Source: an uncultured Lachnospiraceae bacterium
GTDB taxonomy: Bacteria > Bacillota > Clostridia > Lachnospirales > Lachnospiraceae
Length of the DNA: 64,000 nt
Reading direction: 5' to 3'
Assembly (NCBI GenBank): GCA_947629865.1
Contig: CANRFJ010000003.1
Location: 1 to 64,000, forward strand
Shown: positions 1 to 37,835 of the stretch, one piece after another
Layout of the letters: each line of letters starts with the position of its first letter
Numbering within the stretch: position 1 is the first letter of the stretch
Made by a program: the position numbers and the translations under genes
The notes under the pieces: model-generated
What the model saw: the letters and a program-made list of their open reading frames with translations, nothing else
Told to the model about the DNA's origin: nothing
Databases searched by the model: none

Positions 1-12
1 AAGGTTGAGAAT

Positions 13-34
13 CTGCCGGCGGCCTAGCTGGCAG
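13..34. other. Imperfect hairpin (ctgccggc-ggcctagct-ggcag core with outer GAGA/TCTC pairing) just downstream of the truncated ATPase ORF; possible mobile-element boundary
   Basis: Self-complementarity read directly; lies within 15 nt of the premature stop of the 46..879 ORF. Confidence 0.35.
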
Positions 35-45
35 AACCTCTCATT

Positions 46-879
46 TTATTTTGTACTAAATCTTGACATAAGACCATACTCTTCTTTTGATTTGGTTGAA
101 CCAATTTGCTCAGAAATATTTGAGATCAATTCCTTTTTAGCATTCTTTTCAGTCTCATCATCGATAATAATACTCTCATATTCCTCTATCTTGTTCTGAG
201 CATTTTCTATATTAGTCTTAGTTGCATTAATATCACTTCCGCTTGAAATAGTCCCTTTACTCAAATAAAGCTTACCAAGAACTGTAGTTTTCAGGTCGGT
301 ATTTCCAATATGACCGAGTGCAGACTCTAAAATATCTAAATCAAAAATAGAATACAATGCCTTGCGAAGATTTTTAGCAGAATCCCTTCCCTTTACTCTG
401 AGATCTGCTATCATATTCTCGCCGTCAAAGAAAAAATATTCTGACAATCCTGATGGAAGCAACTTTTCTATGGTCTCCTGCGGTCGTTCAATTCTCTTCC
501 AATTATCATCTGAATCCAAATGATTAAGTTCTAACTCTTCGTTGATAATAGATGAAGAATCTAATTCCTTGCGATAAGTAATTGTTCGGGTGAGAGAATA
601 CTTCTCATTCATATGTTCAAAATCTATTCGCCCCATTACTTGAAATGTAGAATTATATGCCTGCTCACTCTCAAAACTCAGGTTGTATAAAGTATCCGAA
701 GTCGTCTTATTGAAGTGGACAGAACCATAAAACACCCACTGAAAGAGTTGGTGTAGAGTAGTTTTTCCGTCTCCATTTTTACCGTAAATAATGGTTACTT
801 TCCCATCGGTAGAGCATTTTATTTCTCCGTATCCTTTAAAATTTCTGAAATTTTCAAACTCAATCCTACTAATCCTCAT
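46..879 (-). CDS. DndD/SMC-like AAA ATPase, N-terminal part only (probably truncated)
   Basis: N-terminal ISRIEFENFRNFKGYGEI and Walker A GKNGDGKTT; ORF stops at 277 aa in a coiled-coil-like region, no Walker B/signature half. Confidence 0.7.
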   Translation of the reverse strand: MRISRIEFENFRNFKGYGEIKCSTDGKVTIIYGKNGDGKTTLHQLFQWVFYGSVHFNKTTSDTLYNLSFESEQAYNSTFQVMGRIDFEHMNEKYSLTRTITYRKELDSSSIINEELELNHLDSDDNWKRIERPQETIEKLLPSGLSEYFFFDGENMIADLRVKGRDSAKNLRKALYSIFDLDILESALGHIGNTDLKTTVLGKLYLSKGTISSGSDINATKTNIENAQNKIEEYESIIIDDETEKNAKKELISNISEQIGSTKSKEEYGLMSRFSTK

Positions 880-1036
880 CAGGCACCTCCTTATCTAACT
901 CAGATAAAATCGAATTAACTATATCCGACTTATATTTATTGTCGCCACTTGAGCCTCTAAGTTTATCATTTACTACACCTCGTTCTTTCTCTTTGATAAA
1001 CTCTATCATATGCTCCTTAATCTGCTCGTCACTCAT
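869..1036 (-). CDS. small charged hypothetical protein in the defence-like operon
   Basis: Short ORF overlapping both neighbours, translationally coupled; MSDEQIKEHM start preferred. Confidence 0.5.
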   Translation of the reverse strand: MSDEQIKEHMIEFIKEKERGVVNDKLRGSSGDNKYKSDIVNSILSELDKEVPDED

Positions 1037-3074
1037 CAATCTCATCCTCCATTTCTTCGTAATCATATACAGCTACGTCTTCTTCTGACAAACCATATTG
1101 AACCAAAAGATTATCTAACTCGTCCATAGTTTCAGCATAATTTATAGACAATTTAGCATATTCTCTATAACGCCTAAGCTCAATCTTAGCCCACTCCACC
1201 ATGTCATTAGACGGCAGTACAACAACATCATAGATAACTGCACTCTTTTTATCATCATAAAGCCTAAGAATACGTCCCCTTCTCTGAACAAATTCCCGGT
1301 AATCGTCGTTACTCGAAAGAATCAATGCACTCTTTATTGATGGAATATTAATTCCCTCGTCCAAACATCTAATAGCCGCCAAAGCAGATATCTCGCCTTT
1401 GTTAAAGGCATCAACCAATTCCATTCTTTCCGTCATATTTTCCTGTGCAGTAAACTGGCTTGCTTTGTAATCCATATCATTTAACACACGTTTTACTTGT
1501 CTGATATGTCTTATTTCTTCGCCGGTATTATCATATAACCTTCCATCACCACAATAAACTACCACATGATCTTTTTCCTCAATCTTATTAACAAAATCAC
1601 CTATACCATCAATCTTTGCTTGTGCCATCGAAATAATCCTTAATCTATTTCTCAATGTCTTTGCAAGACTTTCGGGATCGATACACTTTCCGTTTCTAAA
1701 ATATGAAGCAATAATTCTCGACTGTTTCCTGAATCGTTCTTCCTCATCATCTGTAGCATATACGAATATCGGTTTATAATAATAAGGAACAAGAAACTTC
1801 TTATCCAGCGCTGTTTCTATTGGAAGATCAAATACCTGTCCACCAAAATATTTCATCAGTTCCTTTCCGGAAGTTGCACTTCGACCACTGTATGGCGTAG
1901 CACTCAATCCCAACATATATTTGTAATCGTTTTTTAATTCCTCACTTCTTTTAGTAAATCTATGCGCTTCGTCAACAATCAACAATTTATCTGAAGAATC
2001 TTTGCTTATAACATTTGTAAATCTGTCCAAATTGAAAGATACAATTGTTGAGATAATAATAATCTGAACATTTTTATTATATCTTTTATTAATAATTGCC
2101 TGACTTATCTTCTGACTCCATGAGGGATTCTCTGATGAAACCATTATAAGTACTGCATCGGGAAATGCTTTTCTTACGTCTTCTGCCCACTGTTTCACTA
2201 AGTGTTTATATGGAGCACATATCACTACAGTTGCAGAATGCTCTTCAAGTAACCTTTTAGCAGAATATATCGCAGTCCATGTCTTACCAGTACCTGTAGC
2301 CATAACATAAAACCCATGATAGTCATTATTAACCCACGCTTTAATTGCCTCTTCCTGATAATCTCTCAGCTTAATCCCTGTGTTACCTTGCTTTCGTGAA
2401 TTACTCCTGCGTTCCATAACCTGAAGCAAATGCTTTCTTGCTGACTCTTTGTATTCATATACTTCAACAAACTTATTCGTGCCATTCCACAACGAATCAA
2501 ATTCTTCCACTTCGTCATCAACACTGTCTTTTTGACCATCTATCCAGCTTTTCACAACACGGATTTTATCATAATTGTCTCTATATCCGTTTTTACTGGA
2601 ATTAGCCGATCCATAAAACGCAACTTTATTGCCATCAAAATCTTCAAGAATTCCTAACTTATCATGATAATCCCCAAGAGTCTTTGTCACTGCAATTCTT
2701 ATATCTAATACTCCTCTAGCTATCAATTCCGCCAGCAGTGCAAGTCTTGAATCATTAAAATTTTCAACTTCTTCCAGAAACTCTCTGCTAAACGCATTCC
2801 CAATAATACGCTCCTTTTCTTCATAGCCAAGATTGATTGCATCAATATCCTCATCATTTAACTTAGGACTGGCAATCATCTTAATATCGCCACCGTTCCT
2901 AACAAACGTAGGAATCCCATCTATAATAGTGTCAAAAACACCCGAAGAAAAATAACCGACACTTCTGTAATAATGATTAGTACATTTCAATGCCGGTATA
3001 ATCAAAGCATCTGCAATACCATCTTCTCCACAACTTATATAACTTCTTTTTATATCCATATCTTTATAATTCAT
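1029..3074 (-). CDS. PLD-like nuclease domain fused to SF2 DEAD/DEAH helicase
   Basis: N-terminal half includes DYHDKLGI...FYGSANSSKNG (HKD/PLD-like); helicase motifs MATGTGKTW, VDEAHR, LSATP, QRRGRILR. Confidence 0.85.
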   Translation of the reverse strand: MNYKDMDIKRSYISCGEDGIADALIIPALKCTNHYYRSVGYFSSGVFDTIIDGIPTFVRNGGDIKMIASPKLNDEDIDAINLGYEEKERIIGNAFSREFLEEVENFNDSRLALLAELIARGVLDIRIAVTKTLGDYHDKLGILEDFDGNKVAFYGSANSSKNGYRDNYDKIRVVKSWIDGQKDSVDDEVEEFDSLWNGTNKFVEVYEYKESARKHLLQVMERRSNSRKQGNTGIKLRDYQEEAIKAWVNNDYHGFYVMATGTGKTWTAIYSAKRLLEEHSATVVICAPYKHLVKQWAEDVRKAFPDAVLIMVSSENPSWSQKISQAIINKRYNKNVQIIIISTIVSFNLDRFTNVISKDSSDKLLIVDEAHRFTKRSEELKNDYKYMLGLSATPYSGRSATSGKELMKYFGGQVFDLPIETALDKKFLVPYYYKPIFVYATDDEEERFRKQSRIIASYFRNGKCIDPESLAKTLRNRLRIISMAQAKIDGIGDFVNKIEEKDHVVVYCGDGRLYDNTGEEIRHIRQVKRVLNDMDYKASQFTAQENMTERMELVDAFNKGEISALAAIRCLDEGINIPSIKSALILSSNDDYREFVQRRGRILRLYDDKKSAVIYDVVVLPSNDMVEWAKIELRRYREYAKLSINYAETMDELDNLLVQYGLSEEDVAVYDYEEMEDEIDE

Positions 3075-3081
3075 ATACTCA

Positions 3082-5706
3082 TCACCACTTGATATCAAAA
3101 TCTTCCATTATATAATCTTCCACAGCATCAATATCATTCAAGTCGATTGTCTGAACCATTTCACCGGAATCAGAATCTCCATAATCCTCCCTGTTAAATC
3201 TACCTATCCTAGAAACAACCGGGGACGATAATCTGAATTGATTTGATGTTGTATTAGCCTCAAGTTCCTTCCCCCATTTATTTATTACGCTATAAATCAA
3301 CCATTCATTCCACGGCACACATATAGAAGGCAGGTTATATATGCACTTAAGATTTGTAATCAATGCACTATTATCTATTTCTTCAAGTATTTGTTGTTCA
3401 ACTTCATTTGCAACATCAGAAGTAATACCTATATATTCTATTGTCGCCATCTCGTCCTTGTTAATCAGTAAATGTGTATCATTCCATCCGTTTAAGAACT
3501 TCAAAATATCATATACAAAATAATGATAATCTTTTGCTAGTCCCTGTAATTCTGTTATCTCAAATACTTCATTTGCTGATACATACTCCTGCAAAAGTTC
3601 TATCGGTTTATTTATATTGGTACCCTTTTCTGCTATGTACGGTCTTGCAAATTCGTATCTATCCTTATACAAATACTGTAACAAACTGAATAAGCTATAT
3701 TGATAAAAAATACCCAATCTATTAAGCATATCCTGATTGCCTTTTTGAATTAATGAAAATATTTCATCACAATGATGAGGCGTACCATCGTTTATAATCG
3801 CTCCAACAACCTTATCAATATACTTTTTATCATCGGCATAAAGATTAAGATTAGCACCATGTATATAAGATCCAAAATAGTTAATTATGTCATCATCAGC
3901 CAAAGCAATGCTAATCATTATTTCTGTAATTCCAGGATAAGCTTTTCTAATTTGTTCTTTTGTCACCGGATATTCTGATTTCTTTATGAACAACTGAATA
4001 TCCCTATACATCGAAAGGTTTTCACTGTCCTTGGATACATAATCCCTTCTAAAGAAAAGATCATTTTCATATTCTTCACGGAGAATTCCCTGAAGAAAAA
4101 ATCTATTATCTATGCCCTCCTCACGAAGCTCATTTTCAAATTCAAGGAAGATTTCATTCATAAAGAATATTCTTCTATCACTTTTCATGATGAATTCCCA
4201 AATCTTTTTTACAAGTTTGTTAGGAATTACAACATCATCTTTTACTTGATACTTTCCTCTTCCACATAAAATACACGTTCTTCCTATCGCAGCAGATATC
4301 GCCCTGTTCTTCTCAGGAAGTGAAACATCTCCAAATTCATTAATCAACAAAGATCTAAAACGTGCAAGTTCCGCATCATCATACACATTCATTCCGTCAG
4401 GATAATACCGTTTCATAACAATATTATACATCTTCTCAAGCGAAAGCTTATTTCTATGATAAATTGTACCTGAAACTTTATATTGCCTATCAATCTCTCT
4501 TTCAAAAATATCTATAGGAATATCATGCTCACCTATTGCTTTGTTTTTATATTCTTCAATAAGCGCAACATCTAATTCATCCGGCATTTTCTCCACATAA
4601 TCTCTTGCAAAATCAGTAATATCATCACCAACAATTATTACTGTATCCGTATCACGATCATACGAAAAGAACTCATCATCGGCACATTGTAATAAGTACA
4701 ACAAAACCTCTGTTATATCACCAAAATACTCTTGCAGTTCTGTTGACTCAATTATAGTTTCGCCATTAAACTCAGCAGACAATCTCGGAAGAAATTTTTT
4801 ATTTCTCTGCCATCGGCAAAATGGTTGAACTATCTTCTTCTCAATCTGACGCACTCGCTCTCTTGTAATCCCTAATTCACCACCTATCTCTTGCAATGTA
4901 CGTTTCCTCGCTCTAAGAAGAAGGACTCTCTCCGCATTCGCAGAACGTTCGTAAAATCCATTCAAAAAAGAGGTGAGCTCTTCTTTTAAATCATAAGAAG
5001 CCCATTTGACAAACTTTATTTTTTCTTCTGCCGAAATAACAGATGATATTGCTTTGTCAAATAGTGATCCAAACAAAACACTACCATCGTCACAATAGTT
5101 TCTAAATTCTTCACTTATAGACTCTCGCATAGGATAGACTTCATAATAAGGCTTAAGGTGATTGTTTATCTTTCCTTTTACAGAATCATATAACTTGTCT
5201 AGTTCTTTGTATCTTTCTATCTGCATAGCAAAACGTTTCAGCATACTAGAAATATCATATGCGAATGCTGGATTATCCCTGCACAGAATAATTAGATTAT
5301 AATCTAAAAGCTCAAATCCCCTCTTTAGTTCTTCAATAGTTCTTTGTTCGCACTCATTAACTCCTTCATACAATTTTTCCGTGAACTCTCCGGAATAAAT
5401 CATGTCTCTTCGATTTTTAATTCTGGATGTCATACAGATATCCATTTTTTCCATCGTCTCTTCTGTCTTTAAATCAAGTTTCTTGACATATTCTTCAATA
5501 TCATTTAAACTTAGCATTCCCAGATTTTTTATCATAGATAGTTTATCATATGACATAGCCAACAAACTATCAATTCCAAAAATACCTGCCCCTTTTAGAC
5601 AATTCGCTGTACGTATTCTAAGAGCCTCGAAGTCTATAGGCATACCTCTGTATAATTCGATATCTATATTATATTTTTCATATAAGACTTCGTTATCTAT
5701 AGTCAT
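3082..5706 (-). CDS. RNA polymerase alpha-CTD-like domain plus sigma-70 region 4-like HTH multidomain protein
   Basis: N-terminal LRIRTANCLKGAGIFGIDSLLAMSYDKLSMIKNLGMLSLNDIEEYVKKL resembles RpoA CTD; RTLQEIGGELGITRERVRQIEKKIVQPF is sigma region 4-like. Confidence 0.8.
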   Translation of the reverse strand: MTIDNEVLYEKYNIDIELYRGMPIDFEALRIRTANCLKGAGIFGIDSLLAMSYDKLSMIKNLGMLSLNDIEEYVKKLDLKTEETMEKMDICMTSRIKNRRDMIYSGEFTEKLYEGVNECEQRTIEELKRGFELLDYNLIILCRDNPAFAYDISSMLKRFAMQIERYKELDKLYDSVKGKINNHLKPYYEVYPMRESISEEFRNYCDDGSVLFGSLFDKAISSVISAEEKIKFVKWASYDLKEELTSFLNGFYERSANAERVLLLRARKRTLQEIGGELGITRERVRQIEKKIVQPFCRWQRNKKFLPRLSAEFNGETIIESTELQEYFGDITEVLLYLLQCADDEFFSYDRDTDTVIIVGDDITDFARDYVEKMPDELDVALIEEYKNKAIGEHDIPIDIFEREIDRQYKVSGTIYHRNKLSLEKMYNIVMKRYYPDGMNVYDDAELARFRSLLINEFGDVSLPEKNRAISAAIGRTCILCGRGKYQVKDDVVIPNKLVKKIWEFIMKSDRRIFFMNEIFLEFENELREEGIDNRFFLQGILREEYENDLFFRRDYVSKDSENLSMYRDIQLFIKKSEYPVTKEQIRKAYPGITEIMISIALADDDIINYFGSYIHGANLNLYADDKKYIDKVVGAIINDGTPHHCDEIFSLIQKGNQDMLNRLGIFYQYSLFSLLQYLYKDRYEFARPYIAEKGTNINKPIELLQEYVSANEVFEITELQGLAKDYHYFVYDILKFLNGWNDTHLLINKDEMATIEYIGITSDVANEVEQQILEEIDNSALITNLKCIYNLPSICVPWNEWLIYSVINKWGKELEANTTSNQFRLSSPVVSRIGRFNREDYGDSDSGEMVQTIDLNDIDAVEDYIMEDFDIKW

Positions 5707-5881
5707 AAATAGCACCTCATATCGTCAAAAGACTTCAGTTGCATACAATAATTTAAAATAATATTATCATATTTCGATTGATTTATCAATTTTCCTTACA
5801 GTTATTTTCAATTCAATTGCCTCCGACGCCCTGTCATTTCACGGAGAGACGGACAGTTCACAGCGCATGGGGACGCCGCCT

Positions 5882-8860
5882 TTATTGCAGCAGCCGGAGC
5901 ACTCCCTGCGTCATCTGGTTCGCCTGGCTGAGGAGGGAAGAAGCCGCCTGCACCAATATGTTGTGTTTTGAAAATTCAGCCGCCTCCTGCGCCATGTCTG
6001 CGTCCCTCAGTTTCGACTCCGCACTCTGAAGATTTTCTGCGGCATTTTTGTCATTGGCATATGCGAATTCAAGCCTGTTGGTAAATGCGCCGAAATCGCT
6101 TCTTATACTGCTTATTATTGCGATTGCCGTGTCCACGTCCGACAGCATCTGCTCCGAATTTTTGCGCGTCAATGTATCTCCCATTCCTATACCCAATGTG
6201 TACGTTGAAAATCCGTCCCAGTCAAGTACGATGCCCTGAAGTTTATTGGCGCCCGCCTGTATCCAGAACGCCCTTGTATCTTCGATGTAGAAATCAAATT
6301 GTGAGACTGTCGCCTGATTTTCTCGCTCATTTGCCGTATAATCCACATAATCATAATCGGTTGATTCCATGGCCACGGAGGTCTGATTGGCTATATTCTG
6401 CATGATCTGGTCGTAATAATCAGGCCATGAGGCAATGCGCCCCCTGACTTCCACATTGTATCTGACAGGCTCGCTTGTGTTCGGCCACTTCAGCGTTCCG
6501 TCCAGATTGTGATAATCGTAGTAATTATATCGCTTAAGTCCGCCCTTGCCGTCGTCTACAAATTCACCATTGGCATCTTCTATCTTATCCGCAAAAGGAG
6601 AGAGATCCTGTTTGAAATCATATGTATAACTCAGGTCAAATCCTCCCTTTCCGGTTTTCTTATCCGCCATTCTCACATCAATTGTACACGATTCCACCTC
6701 ATAGGGTTTCGTGTCAAATGAGCCAAGCGAATTATGGCGCTCGTCGCAGACGTAAAAACTGCTCCCGTCCGCTGCATATTGCTGGTAATGGAAGTCAAAC
6801 ACCGCCTCGTTCATTACATCTACCAATGCGTTCGCAAACTGTTCGCCGTAGGCGATTCCCTTATCCATCATAGATTTTATATCGACCATCAGTGTATAAT
6901 TATTCTGCCCGTCATTGAACATGGAGTAGCCATATCCGTCAGATGTTGTCTTGTCTGTATCTCCCCACACAAACAGCACGCTGTAGTGATTGTCGCAGGT
7001 AGCACATGTCGAGTTGAAACCCGTTCCAAGCAGGTCGTAAATCTCATAAGCCGTCCCCATGCCTGAAAAATCCAGTTCCACAGCGCTGTATGTCCCGCTC
7101 AGTCCCTGCGTGGAATTCATTTTCCCGTTGAAAACAAACTCTCCCTCCTGTATGCTGCCGCCCCCTATCACATCCTCTAACGTCGGAAACGAGGCGCTCT
7201 TGCCACTGAGAAGCGCCTGAACCTGCCGCGCTGTAAAATAACTCTCATAAGCGCGGGCCTTATCCTCTATCGTCTTCTGACTTGTCATCTGACTTGTGCC
7301 GAATGTGAGTTCTGGATCTCCGGATGCTTTGTTCGGAAATGTCAATACAAATTCATCCGTCGCCGCATCATAGGTGAGTGTACCGTTGGAAAAAGTTTCA
7401 GACTGGACATCAAAATTTCTTCCGAGCGCCGCCTCGTCATATATATCCACATTCACATTCTTACCTGTCATTCTGCCGTCCGTCAGACCGTTTCCCGCTG
7501 TAAATCCCATATTCAGATCATTATTTGTCCGGATCAGCGTATCTCTGAGGCTGGCGTCGTTGATTCCCTCAATTACAGAGTCAATACTGGTTTCGTCCAG
7601 CAGTTTAAAATCAAACTTAATGTCATAGCCATCTTCATTGAAACGGTATTCATACTGCTTCTTATCCGATATGTCTCCCATGGAATCCCAGGAGCGGATT
7701 CCCATATCCTCCCACGTTTTTTTGGAGCCCCGCACCTCGGCGCCGTCTGAGCCGTCCGCATTTACGGTGACAATCCATATGCCCGACTCGTCTGCTTTCA
7801 GCCGCATATCCATGTCGTGGTTATTTATCAGCATATTGTAGAGAGCGCTGTTGACGCGCAGACTACTGCCTTCGGAATGAATGATATCGACAGCCTGTTC
7901 AAAATCATATCCCGAATATTCGTTTACATACTTTCTCTCATATCTCGCATTGGCGGCGTCAATTCCGTTGATCACATCGTCGAGAGAATCAAATTCCGGA
8001 ATGTAAAAACAGCCTATTCCGTCTCCCGACTTGAAATGATAAAAGCCGCCTTCGCCGATATGATCCAGAATACTCTCATCATCTTCATTCAGGACGTCTC
8101 TCCAGTCGACGTGCTCCCCTGCAATATTTATGCCTTTCTCGTCTGCCGTAACGGGAAACGTGACCTTGATTTCCGGAGGCTTGCTGCCCTCTTTACACTC
8201 TATGTCAATCTTAAAAAATCCTCCGTCATAGCGGTATGTTCCCTCGTTAAACACAACCTCTCCCGTCACCGGATCTGTTTTGACCATATTGGGATTAATC
8301 TCTTTCCATGCTATTCGGGTGTCCTCTCCGCCGGTCGGCGTACTGAGTATGATTCCCCCGTAGGAATTCGGATCGTCCGGATCGCCGTTCGTCGCATCAA
8401 ATATTTTAACAACCTTAAACTCCCGACTGAACTCGATCTCATATGGAATCGCAAATATCTTCTTTTTGTTAAATTCTGTATCGCCGCTTATCCGGTTAAG
8501 CTCTTTTTTTAACTGCTTAATCTCGTCATTGATATTTCCCCTGTCCTCGTCCGTGCAGACATCGTTGGCAGCCTGAACCGACAGTTCCTTTATACGGCCG
8601 AGGATATTATGCACTTCATTGAGCGCCCCGTCTGCCGTCTGGCAGAAACTGATACCGTCCTGAACATTTTTGGCAGCCCGCTCAAGGCCCCGGATCTGTC
8701 CTCTTAATTTCTCTGAGATGGCCAGCCCCGCCGCATCATCTGCCGCACGGTTTATCCTGTAGCCTGACGAAAGCCGTTCCATGGCCTTGATTTTATTCCG
8801 GTTATTTATCTGAAAATTTCTGCTGACATAATCTGCCACTGCATTATATGCAATTATCAT
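5882..8860 (-). CDS. very large flagellin (992 aa) with conserved N/C termini and a long central domain
   Basis: N-term ERLSSGYRINRAADDAAGLAISEKLRGQIRGL, C-term DADMAQEAAEFSKHNILVQAASSLLSQANQMTQGVLRLL. Confidence 0.95.
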   Translation of the reverse strand: MIIAYNAVADYVSRNFQINNRNKIKAMERLSSGYRINRAADDAAGLAISEKLRGQIRGLERAAKNVQDGISFCQTADGALNEVHNILGRIKELSVQAANDVCTDEDRGNINDEIKQLKKELNRISGDTEFNKKKIFAIPYEIEFSREFKVVKIFDATNGDPDDPNSYGGIILSTPTGGEDTRIAWKEINPNMVKTDPVTGEVVFNEGTYRYDGGFFKIDIECKEGSKPPEIKVTFPVTADEKGINIAGEHVDWRDVLNEDDESILDHIGEGGFYHFKSGDGIGCFYIPEFDSLDDVINGIDAANARYERKYVNEYSGYDFEQAVDIIHSEGSSLRVNSALYNMLINNHDMDMRLKADESGIWIVTVNADGSDGAEVRGSKKTWEDMGIRSWDSMGDISDKKQYEYRFNEDGYDIKFDFKLLDETSIDSVIEGINDASLRDTLIRTNNDLNMGFTAGNGLTDGRMTGKNVNVDIYDEAALGRNFDVQSETFSNGTLTYDAATDEFVLTFPNKASGDPELTFGTSQMTSQKTIEDKARAYESYFTARQVQALLSGKSASFPTLEDVIGGGSIQEGEFVFNGKMNSTQGLSGTYSAVELDFSGMGTAYEIYDLLGTGFNSTCATCDNHYSVLFVWGDTDKTTSDGYGYSMFNDGQNNYTLMVDIKSMMDKGIAYGEQFANALVDVMNEAVFDFHYQQYAADGSSFYVCDERHNSLGSFDTKPYEVESCTIDVRMADKKTGKGGFDLSYTYDFKQDLSPFADKIEDANGEFVDDGKGGLKRYNYYDYHNLDGTLKWPNTSEPVRYNVEVRGRIASWPDYYDQIMQNIANQTSVAMESTDYDYVDYTANERENQATVSQFDFYIEDTRAFWIQAGANKLQGIVLDWDGFSTYTLGIGMGDTLTRKNSEQMLSDVDTAIAIISSIRSDFGAFTNRLEFAYANDKNAAENLQSAESKLRDADMAQEAAEFSKHNILVQAASSLLSQANQMTQGVLRLLQ

Positions 8861-33401: not shown

Positions 33402-34514
33402 TCAGCTCAATTCCCTTTCAATTTCTTCTATTGTTGGCAATGTTCCTTTAAAATTCTCCGGCACAAGCTTAGAAAGCTCAAACTCGGAAATTCCAATCGG
33501 TGCATTGATATTATTTACTGCATACTGTGCCAGTATATTGTCTTTTGTCTTGCATATCAAAAGTCCGATTGTTCTTGCATCTCCTTCTTTGCATAGAATA
33601 CCATCTACTGCAGCAACATAAGTACTGATCTGTCCCATATCACCAGGTTCAAAATCTCTTATTTTAATTTCAATCACTACATAACAATGAAGCGTGATAT
33701 TGTAAAAAAGCATATCTATAAATTGCTCCGTCTGACCAAGTACAATTTGATATTCCCGACCTACAAAGGCAAAGCCCGTGCCAAGTTCCAAGAGAAACCG
33801 CTGTATGTTGTCCATCAAGGCGTCCTTTAGTTCCTTTTCGTAATATCCTTCTGTAATCGTCAAGAAGTCAAAATTATATGGATCTTTGGTCATTTCCTGT
33901 GCCAAATCACTTTGTGGAGAAGGTAAAGTTTTATCAAAATTGCTGATTGCTTTACCTTGACGCTCATAAAGATTTGTGTCAAGAAAATTCATCAGTACCA
34001 CTCTTGACCAATTATTTTCAAGTGTCTTTTTCACAAAAAACAGTGCTTTTTCGCGATCATCCTTACACCTGTCCATAATCAATTTATGATGCCCCCATGG
34101 AATACTGAATATATCTACACCAGTCTGATTTACTTCATCACTGAGAAAAGTCTCTAATTTTCCCCCAACTTGGGGGAATTTTTTATTGACATCTATTTTT
34201 CCCTCAACTTGGGGGAATTCTTCGCCCATGTGATATAACCGATAAAATTTTATCATATAAAACAAATTCGTCTTTGAAAATCCTTTGGCATTGGGAATTA
34301 TCTCTCTCAAATCTTCACTCAAAGTAGTCACAAAGGAACTTCCCCATCTGCTTTCCGCTCTTAGCATAGCAATATCCCGCCCTATAGACCAGTAAAACAT
34401 CAGCATTTCCCGATTAACGGACGACGCTGCCTTTATCTGGCTGCTCTGATATCGACTTTTCAAATCAGTAATCCAGTTTTTGTAATCGTCATCAGCTTTT
34501 ACAATGTTACTCAT
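33402..34514 (-). CDS. DUF1016 / YhcG-type PDDEXK nuclease domain protein
   Basis: SREMLMFYWSIGRDI-like N-term; C-terminal LGTGFAFVGREYQIVLG...LHCYVVIEIKIRDFEPGDMGQISTYV. Confidence 0.9.
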   Translation of the reverse strand: MSNIVKADDDYKNWITDLKSRYQSSQIKAASSVNREMLMFYWSIGRDIAMLRAESRWGSSFVTTLSEDLREIIPNAKGFSKTNLFYMIKFYRLYHMGEEFPQVEGKIDVNKKFPQVGGKLETFLSDEVNQTGVDIFSIPWGHHKLIMDRCKDDREKALFFVKKTLENNWSRVVLMNFLDTNLYERQGKAISNFDKTLPSPQSDLAQEMTKDPYNFDFLTITEGYYEKELKDALMDNIQRFLLELGTGFAFVGREYQIVLGQTEQFIDMLFYNITLHCYVVIEIKIRDFEPGDMGQISTYVAAVDGILCKEGDARTIGLLICKTKDNILAQYAVNNINAPIGISEFELSKLVPENFKGTLPTIEEIERELS

Positions 34515-34806
34515 ACACAACCTCCGTCATACTTCCTGCTTCATATATAATAAAACCTCCTGTTTGTGGTTTATCCGCCATTTCAATTTTACTCATAATT
34601 GCACTCTGTATTTTTTATCGTTAACGCATTTGCTTTAACCACTGGGCACGCCCCTTTCAGTACAATCTAGCAAAATATAGTATATCAAAAAAAGCCTGTC
34701 ATTTCCAGCATTTTTCTATGTTATCATTATGTTGTTATTATGTTATTTTTAATCTTACCCTCCTTCTCCCCGTCTAATCCAACATTCAGAAAAGAGAGAC
34801 TAAAAA

Positions 34807-35523
34807 TCAACCCTCATTTTCCGCCATCCGTATAAACTCTGAAAATATCGCCCTGCTGTTTTTGTCTGTCTGATACGAAAATTCAGGGTGCCACTGTATT
34901 CCCCAAATAAATTTCTTCTCAGGTATACATACTGCCTCAATCAAACCGTCCTCCGAGACTGCCATTGCAAGCGCTTTGGGCGCTAACATATGAATCGCCT
35001 GATGATGATAACTGTTTACCTTAAGTGTTTTCGCCTTCAACAATTCGTACAACGGACTATGTTCTACAATATCTACAGAGTGTACGGGTGAATTATAAGG
35101 CGGTGACTGGTGATGCTCAATATCCGTAGGATACTCCGAGGGCAGATCCTGATATAATGTTCCACCCATCGCAACATTAATCAATTGTATCCCCCGACAT
35201 ATTCCAAGAAGCGGTTTATCCCTTTTATATACCATACGAAACAATATGGTTTCCATTTCGTCACGCTCTTTACAGCACAAACCGCATTTTTCTGAAGGCT
35301 TCTGCTCATATAAGCGAGGCGAAACATCCTGGCCTCCGGTACATAGAAAGCCATCCATTTCCTCTGCAATCTGTTGCAAATTTTCTTTGTCCGATGTCAG
35401 AGGAAGCATAACAGGTATCCCTCCTGCCTGTTCAATCCCTTTCATATAACCGGGAAGCATCCAATAACTCTGTCTCTCCTCATCGACTAATGGAATAACC
35501 CCTATTACTGGTTTTTTCATCAT
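34807..35523 (-). CDS. gamma-glutamyl-gamma-aminobutyrate hydrolase family (peptidase C26)
   Basis: GFLCTGGQDVSPRLY, LLGICRGIQLINVAMGGTLYQDL, WGIQWHPEF. Confidence 0.94.
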   Translation of the reverse strand: MMKKPVIGVIPLVDEERQSYWMLPGYMKGIEQAGGIPVMLPLTSDKENLQQIAEEMDGFLCTGGQDVSPRLYEQKPSEKCGLCCKERDEMETILFRMVYKRDKPLLGICRGIQLINVAMGGTLYQDLPSEYPTDIEHHQSPPYNSPVHSVDIVEHSPLYELLKAKTLKVNSYHHQAIHMLAPKALAMAVSEDGLIEAVCIPEKKFIWGIQWHPEFSYQTDKNSRAIFSEFIRMAENEG

Positions 35524-35559
35524 CAATACCCCCTTTTCTGCCATGTTTATTAAACAAAC

Positions 35560-35589
35560 AAAGGCGCCCTGCTATTGCAGAACGCCTTT
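35560..35589 (-). terminator. Rho-independent terminator after the Toprim-like/ATPase operon
   Basis: AAAGGCGTTCTGC-AATA-GCAGGGCGCCTTT then TGTTTGTTT on minus strand. Confidence 0.85.
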
Positions 35590-35656
35590 GCTCATACAGT
35601 TAGGATTTTACTACATTTTTTGTGATGCGTCAACTTTCTGCCGCCTCGTGCTTACA

Positions 35657-36259
35657 TCATTTCATATCGGATATTTGATCCATGCAGTAATTTACAAACT
35701 CTAACATATTTGTTTCTTTCACATTTTTTATCTTATTTGCAAATAACTGTATTTGTTTAACCGTATCGAGGCTCACAGGATCTGTATTAATCGGAAATAC
35801 TTTACTATAATAGTTTCCTTTTTCTGAATTCGATATGCGCTCAACCATAATCCCCGCCTTTATCATAACATCCTCAAGATTAGAAATATTGTATATTGGC
35901 ACAATATATTTCTCTAATGGGTGATTTTTAAATAAACTTTTCGTTATATATTCCTCTTTCATTTTATCGGAACAGTCATCCGTATCCATAATGATAAATA
36001 ATTTAAAATTGTTTAACTTTTTCCTCTTTCTATCATACTCAACTGAATATTCCTCAGCAAATGCGCTCAATGATCTAAACGGCTTCTTATTCAAATAATC
36101 CTTCAATCCATTTATCTGTATGCTACTTCTTCCTTTATTTTCAGCTATTATTTTTACAGATAAATGAAGATTTGTATATATATAGCGTACAATGTGAAAC
36201 TCTGATTTCCCATGAACAATCACTGCTGCCTTTGTGTAATTCAACGAATTCGAGGGCAT
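35657..36259 (-). CDS. RloB/Toprim-like small protein paired with ATPase
   Basis: IVHGKSEFHIVRYI ... FIIMDTDDCSD (Toprim-like); 2 bp from the ATPase gene. Confidence 0.5.
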   Translation of the reverse strand: MPSNSLNYTKAAVIVHGKSEFHIVRYIYTNLHLSVKIIAENKGRSSIQINGLKDYLNKKPFRSLSAFAEEYSVEYDRKRKKLNNFKLFIIMDTDDCSDKMKEEYITKSLFKNHPLEKYIVPIYNISNLEDVMIKAGIMVERISNSEKGNYYSKVFPINTDPVSLDTVKQIQLFANKIKNVKETNMLEFVNYCMDQISDMK

Positions 36260-36261
36260 TA

Positions 36262-37614
36262 TTATACATCCCCCTCTCCATTCGATTCATCACTTCTTAA
36301 CTCATTTAAAATCAGATCATAATCCAAGGTGTCAACCACAGGTATTCCGCCAAACAAACCCTTTAGATACATTATTCTGGGATTATTAGTACCTTGAATC
36401 CTCTGATATTTATCAAGGCATTTCACTTCTTTATTCCCTTGATAATCCACATTAATTAAATACGCTGATTTTATATCAATGCTCTCCAACATGTATGTGT
36501 TATGAGTTGTAATTATTAATTGTCCGGATATGTCCTCAATCATAGACTCCAAAATAATTTTAAGTAATAAATCATGAATTCCGTCATCTATTTCATCATA
36601 TACGACTGTTATTCCGCAAAACGCTCCCAACAAAGAACGAATAATATCAAGAATATGCTGTGTCCCTGCCGATTCATTTTCAAATGCAATCGTTCTTATC
36701 TTCCCACCAATCATTTTTTTTACAAAAAGTTTATATGAAATCTCATTTTCTTTATAAACCCGCTCATAAAAAACATCCTTTATATCAGCATACGCTTGTG
36801 TAAAAAAGTCTCTTAAAATGCGCTCCGACCGATTCAAATTGGTTTCATATGATTTTTTTATTTTTCCAACATCCATCCTGAGCAAAATATTATCCGGTTT
36901 CCCCGCTTCAACCTCCATTCCCGAATAGGAAGTTTTCTTATAATGCACACTTATTTCTTCCAACATATCCAGAACTTCCAGAATATATTTGGAATAATTA
37001 TCATTTATATACTGCTCATTTTTTTCTTTTCTTTCTTTATTCAATATACTTAATAATGAATGTTTCCCCCAATACTTTTCTATTTCGTTACAGATTTCTT
37101 CTTCAACCTTTTTATTGTTAAATAACTTATTGGACAATATTGGCACTATTCTTCCATTTTCGTTTTTTATTTCAAAGAATGTCCCTCTTTGCTTACCCGT
37201 GAAATAATACAATTTCTCGTACAAAAATTTTTCAGCAAAACTTAAAATATAATAGCCCTCATGATCGCCAATTTTAAAACCATATTCAACTCGGGTTTCA
37301 TCCTCACAATCTTTCATCCTACAGCTATCTGTAAGTTTCAAAATATCGGTTCCACCGATAAGCATTTCCAATATCTCCTTCGGCAGTTCCTGCTTTGGTA
37401 CTATTTCTTTTATTTTCTCCGCATTCATCAACATTTCAAACGAATCTATACTTCGCCTCAGCAAATTGATGCTATTAACAAAATTAGATTTTCCACTCCC
37501 ATTCTCACCATAAATGGCAACAAATTTTTTGGCTCCTCTACTCCCATTTTTTAAGTCAAACATCGCATCTTTAAATGACATAAAATTTTTTAGCTTAATG
37601 TATGTGAACATCAT
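36262..37614 (-). CDS. OLD-/RloA-like AAA ATPase
   Basis: YIKLKNFMSFKDAMFDL, GENGSGKSNFVNSINLLRRS, ITVVYDEIDDGIHDLLLK, LIITTHNTYMLE. Confidence 0.85.
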   Translation of the reverse strand: MMFTYIKLKNFMSFKDAMFDLKNGSRGAKKFVAIYGENGSGKSNFVNSINLLRRSIDSFEMLMNAEKIKEIVPKQELPKEILEMLIGGTDILKLTDSCRMKDCEDETRVEYGFKIGDHEGYYILSFAEKFLYEKLYYFTGKQRGTFFEIKNENGRIVPILSNKLFNNKKVEEEICNEIEKYWGKHSLLSILNKERKEKNEQYINDNYSKYILEVLDMLEEISVHYKKTSYSGMEVEAGKPDNILLRMDVGKIKKSYETNLNRSERILRDFFTQAYADIKDVFYERVYKENEISYKLFVKKMIGGKIRTIAFENESAGTQHILDIIRSLLGAFCGITVVYDEIDDGIHDLLLKIILESMIEDISGQLIITTHNTYMLESIDIKSAYLINVDYQGNKEVKCLDKYQRIQGTNNPRIMYLKGLFGGIPVVDTLDYDLILNELRSDESNGEGDV

Positions 37615-37835
37615 CGCCACCTCCATATCAATAATATCTCCTTTCTTCGTTTTTGTCAATAACTTATTCGTTTTTGTTATTTTTTATACCATTTTGCGCA
37701 AACTTTTACTCTTTTATGCATAAAAATAAAAACATATGCAGCACTAACCGCTAACATATGTTTTTATCCAAAACGCTTTATCCTTATCTTTATACCACAT
37801 CCCACAGCGGCCGCCGGCTCTCTGAACACTTCCTT

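What the first reader, a model, noticed from the sequence alone, without database searches (positions are those of the whole stretch)
46..5706. Candidate new defence-type operon: RpoA-CTD/sigma4 fusion + PLD-helicase + small ORF + DndD-like ATPase
Four overlapping or coupled minus-strand ORFs in an AT-rich segment next to ordinary genes. The lead gene (877 aa) combines an RNA polymerase alpha-CTD-like HhH domain with a sigma-70 region 4-like HTH, yet is not a sigma factor by length or context. It is followed by a PLD-like nuclease fused to an SF2 helicase and an SMC/DndD-type ATPase. Seen: motifs and overlaps. Known: PLD/HKD-helicase proteins and DndD-like ATPases recur in anti-phage and phosphorothioation-linked loci. 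Inference: a DNA-targeting defence module in which the transcription-factor-like subunit senses promoters, transcription complexes or phage sigma/RNAP. I do not recognise this exact gene set as a named system.
Basis: partly seen in the sequence, partly recalled or inferred. Interest (0 to 1): 0.82.

Follow-up and report, generated by a model that had tools for sequence, protein, structure and literature searches.

The report
Truncated PbeABCD operon with promoter-like leader
This is a broken copy of a known bacterial anti-virus operon (PbeABCD) that works with sulphur-tagged DNA; the new part is its uncharacterised first gene, which joins DNA-reading pieces of RNA polymerase to a long chain of other DNA-binding domains and accompanies one whole branch of this operon.

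Summary
The four minus-strand ORFs are real, but most of the set is already named. The helicase is PbeA (PADLOC E 4.6e-197), the 65-aa ORF is the positional PbeB, and the ATPase is the first 40% of PbeC. They belong to PbeABCD, the published phosphorothioation-linked antiviral system. The new part is the lead gene (874/877 aa): an RNAP alpha-CTD, a SigA-like region-4 HTH that keeps the -35-reading residues, no sigma region 2, then about eight tandem winged helices (AlphaFold pLDDT 84). It lies directly upstream of pbeA in every sampled member of one PbeA clade (15/15; 5/5 among loci found through pbeA alone). Relatives head type 4 BREX operons and sit in a PDC-M33 locus. I found no report of it in the papers I could search. 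Best reading: a promoter-like DNA-recognition subunit of the defence complex; operon regulator is the main rival. A new component of a known system, not a new system.

The parts
1..76 (+). End of an IS3-type insertion element; 1-27 encode the transposase C-terminus KVENLPAA*
   Evidence: 75-76 bp shared (97-100%) with five other contigs; rve integrase domains in the copy on contig C1; reading frame
46..879 (-). pbeC, truncated: homologous part 75-879 (about 268 of 656 codons), last codons read into the IS
   Evidence: PADLOC PbeC E 3.6e-38, profile positions 1-258 of 651; 91% DNA identity to L037 from window 75
869..1066 (-). pbeB, small protein (65 aa or less, depending on start)
   Evidence: Position and size as PbeB (66 aa); conserved in relatives, 100% to 35% identity
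1029..3074 (-). pbeA, PLD (HKD) nuclease fused to SF2 helicase, 681 aa from ATG
   Evidence: PADLOC PbeA E 4.6e-197 over residues 11-658; HDKLGILED, GTGKT, DEAH and QRRGR motifs
3082..5706 (-). ORF877: alpha-CTD / sigma region 4 / winged-helix array protein (874 aa from ATG; 877 aa from GTG at 5715)
5482..5622 (-). RNAP alpha-CTD (HhH) domain of ORF877, residues 32-78
   Evidence: PF03118 E 1.8e-9; R265 and G296 counterparts kept in all 12 relatives with the domain, N268 in 9 of 12
4786..4989 (-). Sigma-70 region 4-like HTH of ORF877, about residues 243-310
   Evidence: PF04545 E 3.4e-8; family profile against PDB: SigA/RpoD region 4, E 1.8e-12; R285, E286, R289, Q290 invariant in 14 relatives
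3178..4794 (-). Array of about eight predicted winged-helix units of ORF877, about residues 308-846
   Evidence: AlphaFold2 with 21 sequences, mean pLDDT 84.3; partial Foldseek matches to tandem winged-helix proteins
5761..5789 (-). Candidate SigA-type promoter (TTGATA - 17 - TAATAT), 55-83 bp upstream of the ATG
   Evidence: Scan; same spacing visible in the upstream alignment of L043 and L044; consensus match only

Best explanation
The locus is the 5' half of a PbeABCD antiviral operon, cut inside pbeC by an IS3-type element, with pbeD and the dnd modification genes missing from the assembly. In intact relatives the order is ORF877-pbeA-pbeB-pbeC-pbeD-dndB-dndC-dndD-dndE-dndA (SHOWN). Published work on an archaeal homologue found that PbeABCD blocks replication of viral DNA that lacks phosphorothioate marks; that function is INFERRED here by homology. 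ORF877 is a lineage-specific fifth component. Its alpha-CTD and sigma-4 modules keep residues that read UP elements and the -35 box, it lacks the sigma region 2 needed to act as a sigma factor, and its chain of winged helices could lie along DNA (domains and residues SHOWN or predicted; DNA binding INFERRED). Proposed mechanism (INFERRED): ORF877 binds promoter-like DNA as a stripped copy of RNA polymerase's DNA-reading parts and helps load or license the PbeA and PbeC-PbeD machine on unmodified, promoter-dense invading DNA, the part that multi-wHTH subunits (SspB/DUF4007, BrxA, the C-terminal part of PglW) are proposed to play in related systems. In this genome the copy is most likely non-functional; a second locus, with complete ssp genes, pbeA, pbeC, a pbeD-like gene and a sigma-70-like gene, lies on another contig.
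For: PADLOC PbeA/PbeC; conserved order with PbeC, DndB (E 1.3e-126) and DndC (E 7.2e-182) in relatives; published function; IS junction and absence of the 3' half; ORF877 in 15/15 members of one PbeA clade, 100/98 support, 5/5 in the subset found through pbeA alone; -35-reading residues invariant; winged-helix array; the same core heads BREX type 4 operons and sits in a PDC-M33 locus, which fits a recognition module better than a regulator private to pbe; a WYL-type regulator already lies upstream in four close relatives.
Against: No interaction, binding or phage data. PbeABCD of Haloterrigena works without such a gene, and most PbeA lineages sampled lack it, so it is not needed for the core activity. 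First place in the operon also fits a regulator. The fast-evolving N-terminal quarter has no assigned role. The window copy itself lacks most of pbeC and all of pbeD.
Confidence: 0.55

Rival explanations
1. ORF877 is the operon's own transcriptional regulator. It sits on the -35/UP region of the pbe-dnd promoter through sigma-4 and alpha-CTD, blocks or helps RNA polymerase there, and senses infection or damage through the winged-helix array.
For: First gene of the operon; a SigA-type promoter 55-83 bp upstream with a conserved block around it in close relatives; regulators upstream of immune operons are common (for example CapK/CapS); region 4 retains -35 readers.
Against: 877 aa with about eight winged helices is very large for a local regulator; the core is shared by unrelated operon types; four close relatives already have a WYL-type regulator upstream.
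Confidence: 0.3
2. ORF877 is a sensor of transcription itself: it contacts RNA polymerase core (beta flap) through its region 4, or competes with phage-modified RNA polymerase or a phage sigma factor for promoters, and releases the Pbe nuclease-helicase when promoters change hands.
For: Region 4 of SigA binds the beta flap as well as DNA, and one fold match is a SigA region 4-flap chimera (8d5v); short sigma-70-like genes with regions 2 and 4 are linked to other pbe loci.
Against: No flap-binding residues were tested; no region 2; no phage-related partner seen.
Confidence: 0.12
3. The set is a new, unnamed defence system.
For: The lead gene has no PADLOC or NCBIfam model of its own.
Against: Strong PbeA and PbeC assignments and synteny with pbeD and dndBCDEA.
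Confidence: 0.03

Closest known systems
PbeABCD, also described as the CxC ABC-ATPase/DndE system (PMC6459918, PMC10853773)
   Same: PLD-SF2 helicase, small protein, ATPase (CxC motif CIC at 346 in intact relatives), next small protein, and linked dnd genes in the same order
   Different: An extra lead gene, ORF877, absent from the published four-gene definition; the window copy is cut inside pbeC and lacks pbeD
PglW of type 2 BREX (PMC12839542)
   Same: Alpha-CTD-like domain followed by winged helices; the alpha-CTD of the related L092 protein matches the PglW profile (E 7e-11)
   Different: PglW also has kinase and nuclease domains and only three winged helices, with no sigma region 4 reported; ORF877 has no enzymatic domain detected
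SspB / DUF4007, BrxA and DndG (multi-wHTH recognition subunits)
   Same: Chain of winged helices in a modification-dependent system, proposed in the literature to recognise DNA
   Different: About three HTH units, no alpha-CTD, no sigma region 4
MzaA of the MZA system
   Same: Sigma region 4 in a large protein of a defence system
   Different: Only a region-4 match, E 5.8e-4 (PADLOC) and 1.8e-5 (NCBIfam), far below the cut-off of 800 bits
Tandem winged-helix proteins UFL1, Dcc1, SelB C-terminus
   Same: Partial fold matches to chains of winged helices
   Different: TM-score at most 0.17 of the query; no similar whole arrangement in the PDB copy

Membership tests
PbeABCD | PbeA: PLD + ResIII + helicase C in one protein | tested here: met
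   PADLOC E 4.6e-197 and Pfam PLDc_2, ResIII, Helicase_C; HKD-type, Walker A and DEAH motifs
PbeABCD | PbeB: small protein between pbeA and pbeC | tested here: met
   65 aa at the same place; conserved in relatives; no profile exists, so place and size only
PbeABCD | PbeC: full-length DndD-like ATPase with CxC hook | tested here: not met
   Window copy ends at about codon 268, before the hook; relatives have full-length PbeC with CIC at 346. The window copy is a remnant of a member, not a working member
PbeABCD | PbeD (DndE cognate) after pbeC | tested here: not met
   Absent from the window and the assembly. Present at the right place in relatives (177 aa), but no PADLOC, Pfam or PDB match confirmed DndE homology
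PbeABCD | Linked PT modification genes (many published loci; not all) | tested here: not met
   No dnd genes beside the window copy; dndB and dndC identified in relatives; an ssp set elsewhere in the same genome
PbeABCD | PT-dependent block of virus replication | not testable with these tools
   Needs a phage challenge; shown in the literature for H. jeotgali
Sigma-70 factor (for ORF877) | Region 2 (core binding, -10 reading) with region 4 | tested here: not met
   Only region 4 found in ORF877 and in family profile searches
MZA system | MzaA match above curated cut-off and linked mza genes | tested here: not met
   23.8 bits against 800; region 4 only; neighbours are pbe genes
PglW (type 2 BREX) | Kinase and nuclease domains before the alpha-CTD/wHTH part | tested here: not met
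   No such domain in ORF877
BREX type 4 | BrxP, BrxC, PglZ beside the gene | tested here: not met
   Not in the window; met only for the distant ORF877 relatives in L098/L099

The most novel reading that the evidence does not exclude
ORF877 founds a family of promoter-mimicking recognition proteins (alpha-CTD copies, sigma region 4, long winged-helix array) that several modification-dependent defence systems (Dnd-Pbe, BREX type 4, PDC-M33) have taken up, so that they find invading DNA by its promoters in addition to, or instead of, a short modification motif.
Probability: 0.27. Interest if true: 0.78.

Novelty: new variant of a known kind. Interest (0 to 1): 0.5.

Why it matters
How PbeABCD stops unmodified DNA is disputed: one paper saw no cleavage, another argues for cleavage. 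A conserved fifth gene whose DNA-reading parts are those of RNA polymerase would give a concrete, testable idea of what these systems look for on invading DNA. It also marks an unannotated component, with no PADLOC or NCBIfam model of its own, shared between systems that are now classified apart.

Tried and rejected
Rejected: a new four-gene system (PADLOC PbeA/PbeC); a true sigma factor (no region 2); MZA membership (region 4 only); a phage- or plasmid-borne gene (only region-4-type matches in viral contigs; no plasmid match; no clear viral fold match). Led nowhere: first AlphaFold job with 5 sequences (pLDDT 52); alignment search of 399 phylum genomes at E 1e-9, swamped by housekeeping RpoA/RpoD so that only the top four hits were usable; PDB sequence search for PbeD; text searches for a published alpha-CTD/sigma-4 gene in Pbe or Dnd loci found none, but subscription papers and preprints are not held and the type 4 BREX paper by Yuan et al. 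could not be read.

Full report
OBSERVATION. The domain calls are right: alpha-CTD and sigma region 4 on the lead gene, PLD plus SF2 helicase, AAA_23 ATPase. The genes are tightly coupled: seven bases lie between the lead gene's stop and the pbeA ATG, and the small ORF overlaps both its neighbours.

IDENTITY. PADLOC assigns the helicase to PbeA (E 4.6e-197, nearly full length) and the ATPase to PbeC (E 3.6e-38, but only profile positions 1-258 of 651). The 65-aa ORF has the place and size of PbeB (66 aa in Haloterrigena jeotgali). Xiong et al. (PMC6459918) found that dndCDEA-pbeABCD lowers SNJ1 virus plating about 10^4-fold, that pbeB, pbeC and pbeD are essential and pbeA partly so, and that viral DNA stays intact but does not replicate. 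Rakesh et al. (PMC10853773) describe the same set as the CxC ABC-ATPase/DndE system and argue that the PLD (HKD) nuclease does cut.

TRUNCATION. Window 1-76 is the end of an IS3-type element: its first 27 bases encode KVENLPAA*, the C-terminus of an rve-family transposase, and the same 75-76 bp occur on five other contigs. Homology to full-length pbeC begins at 75. A 4.6-kb query from the close relative L037, holding the rest of pbeC, pbeD, dndB, dndC and the start of dndD, matches nothing else in this 98.24% complete assembly. The copy is probably an IS-associated deletion remnant. Loss by incomplete assembly cannot be excluded, because the contig ends inside the repeat. The purifying selection measured is the family's history and says nothing about this break.

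INTACT RELATIVES. In L037-L039 and most of the named records L043-L054 (Lachnospiraceae, Eubacteriaceae and other Clostridia) the order is ORF877, pbeA, pbeB, pbeC, pbeD, then dndB, dndC, a DndD-type ATPase, a DndE-size gene and the start of a cysteine-desulfurase-like gene. Some differ downstream: L053 has other sulphur genes, L060 has the dnd genes on the other strand. Of the 13 named loci with ORF877, ten have intact pbeA beside it, two a pbeA remnant (L046, L051) and one (L055) none.

IS THE ASSOCIATION CONSERVED? I fetched 42 PbeA loci found in samples of the class, family and phylum and built a PbeA tree with the named loci (53 rows). ORF877 marks one clade, 15 of 15, support 100/98. Most named loci were found through ORF877, so the less biased part is 5 of 5 (G040/L044, L058, L060, L071, L072). 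The sisters L073 and L075 lack it; L061 is cut by its contig end. Separately, large proteins with sigma region 4, some with alpha-CTD, lie directly upstream of pbeA in another clade (L079, L090, L091, L092), and one with two alpha-CTD copies lies downstream of the pbeD-like gene in L066. The region-4 match in L091 is weak (E 0.049). Short proteins with sigma regions 2 and 4 follow the pbeD-like gene in a further clade, including a second locus of this genome, and one lies near it in L094. RNA-polymerase-type DNA-binding modules have thus joined pbe loci more than once.

BEYOND PBE. The sigma-4 and winged-helix core of ORF877 also heads type 4 BREX operons: in L098 it is followed by a 238-aa gene, BrxP (E 1.1e-265), BrxC (1.5e-131) and PglZ (7.7e-59), and L099 has the same set by similarity. 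In L134 it lies in a PDC-M33 cluster with a cytosine methylase, a type II restriction enzyme and an HNH gene. Type 4 BREX is itself based on phosphorothioation (PMC12839542). I found no plasmid match and only region-4-type matches in viral contigs.

ANATOMY OF ORF877. Residues 32-78 are the alpha-CTD (one copy here, two in L053, three in L052), about 243-310 a SigA-like region 4, about 308-846 about eight predicted winged-helix units, then a disordered acidic tail. The counterparts of the sigma-70 residues that read the -35 box, R285, E286, R289 and Q290, are invariant in 14 relatives. In the alpha-CTD the R265 and G296 counterparts are kept in all 12 relatives that have the domain and N268 in 9 of 12 (the role of these residues is from general knowledge of RNA polymerase). 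Sequence matches in the PDB are SigA/RpoD-type region 4. Fold matches are partial and mainly to tandem winged-helix proteins such as UFL1, Dcc1 and SelB, TM at most 0.17 of the query. There is no sigma region 2, so it is not a sigma factor.

MECHANISM. Shown: composition, order, residue conservation, truncation. Predicted: the winged-helix array. Inferred: DNA binding, promoter preference, joining the Pbe complex. I prefer a recognition subunit because the core is shared by different modification-dependent systems, because the array resembles what the literature proposes for SspB, BrxA and PglW, and because four close relatives already have a WYL-type regulator upstream. A regulator of the operon is a serious rival, given the first position and a promoter-like site 55-83 bp upstream. 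A sensor of RNA polymerase or of its takeover by phage is possible.

NOVELTY. The system is known. The fifth gene is unreported in the papers I could search. Partial parallels exist: the alpha-CTD plus winged helices of PglW and the sigma-type HTH of BrxL (PMC12839542), DndH variants with a sigma-type HTH (PMC10853773), and MzaA. I score it as a new variant of a known kind.

Noticed in passing
L041 9156-15310 and L011 3324-10546 (same genome, contig C1): A second PT-type locus: sspD, sspB, sspC, sspA, then pbeA, pbeC, a 175-aa pbeD-like gene and a 386-aa sigma-70-like gene (regions 2 and 4). 19 of the 42 PbeA loci sampled have ssp genes beside pbeA; I did not check whether this pairing has been published.
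   Followed up: partly
L067 11487-12647, L068 5012-6073, L083 13754-14854, L085 13862-14950: Short sigma-70-like genes (353-386 aa, regions 2 and 4) directly after the pbeD-like gene in one PbeA clade; another lies near pbeD in L094.
   Followed up: partly
L048 463-1293, L049 9038-9868, L061 442-1254: A HARE-HTH plus Mrr-type restriction endonuclease of 270-276 aa in the pbe-dnd neighbourhood (the L048 gene has the same length and start as that of L049).
   Followed up: no
L046 7018-9890: ORF877 followed by a pbeA N-terminal remnant, then a HARE-HTH-like 272-aa ORF, a 343-aa ORF and a 99-aa sigma-4 ORF: looks like a recombination scar.
   Followed up: no
window 33402-37659: A second AT-rich block with a YhcG/DUF1016 nuclease (PDC-S02) and an AbiLi-like AAA ATPase followed by an unassigned 200-aa gene: another likely defence module.
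   Followed up: partly
window 5882-8860: A 992-aa flagellin: normal N- and C-terminal flagellin domains with a very long unassigned middle part.
   Followed up: no
L043 8094-9098, L044 8669-9691, L045 6260-7345, L046 2582-3574: A 330-361 aa WYL-domain regulator (weak PDB match, E 0.002) upstream of ORF877 in four close relatives but not in the window.
   Followed up: yes
L100 9394-10914: An isolated 506-aa ORF877-like gene in a genome sampled without PbeA, with no defence gene recognised beside it.
   Followed up: no
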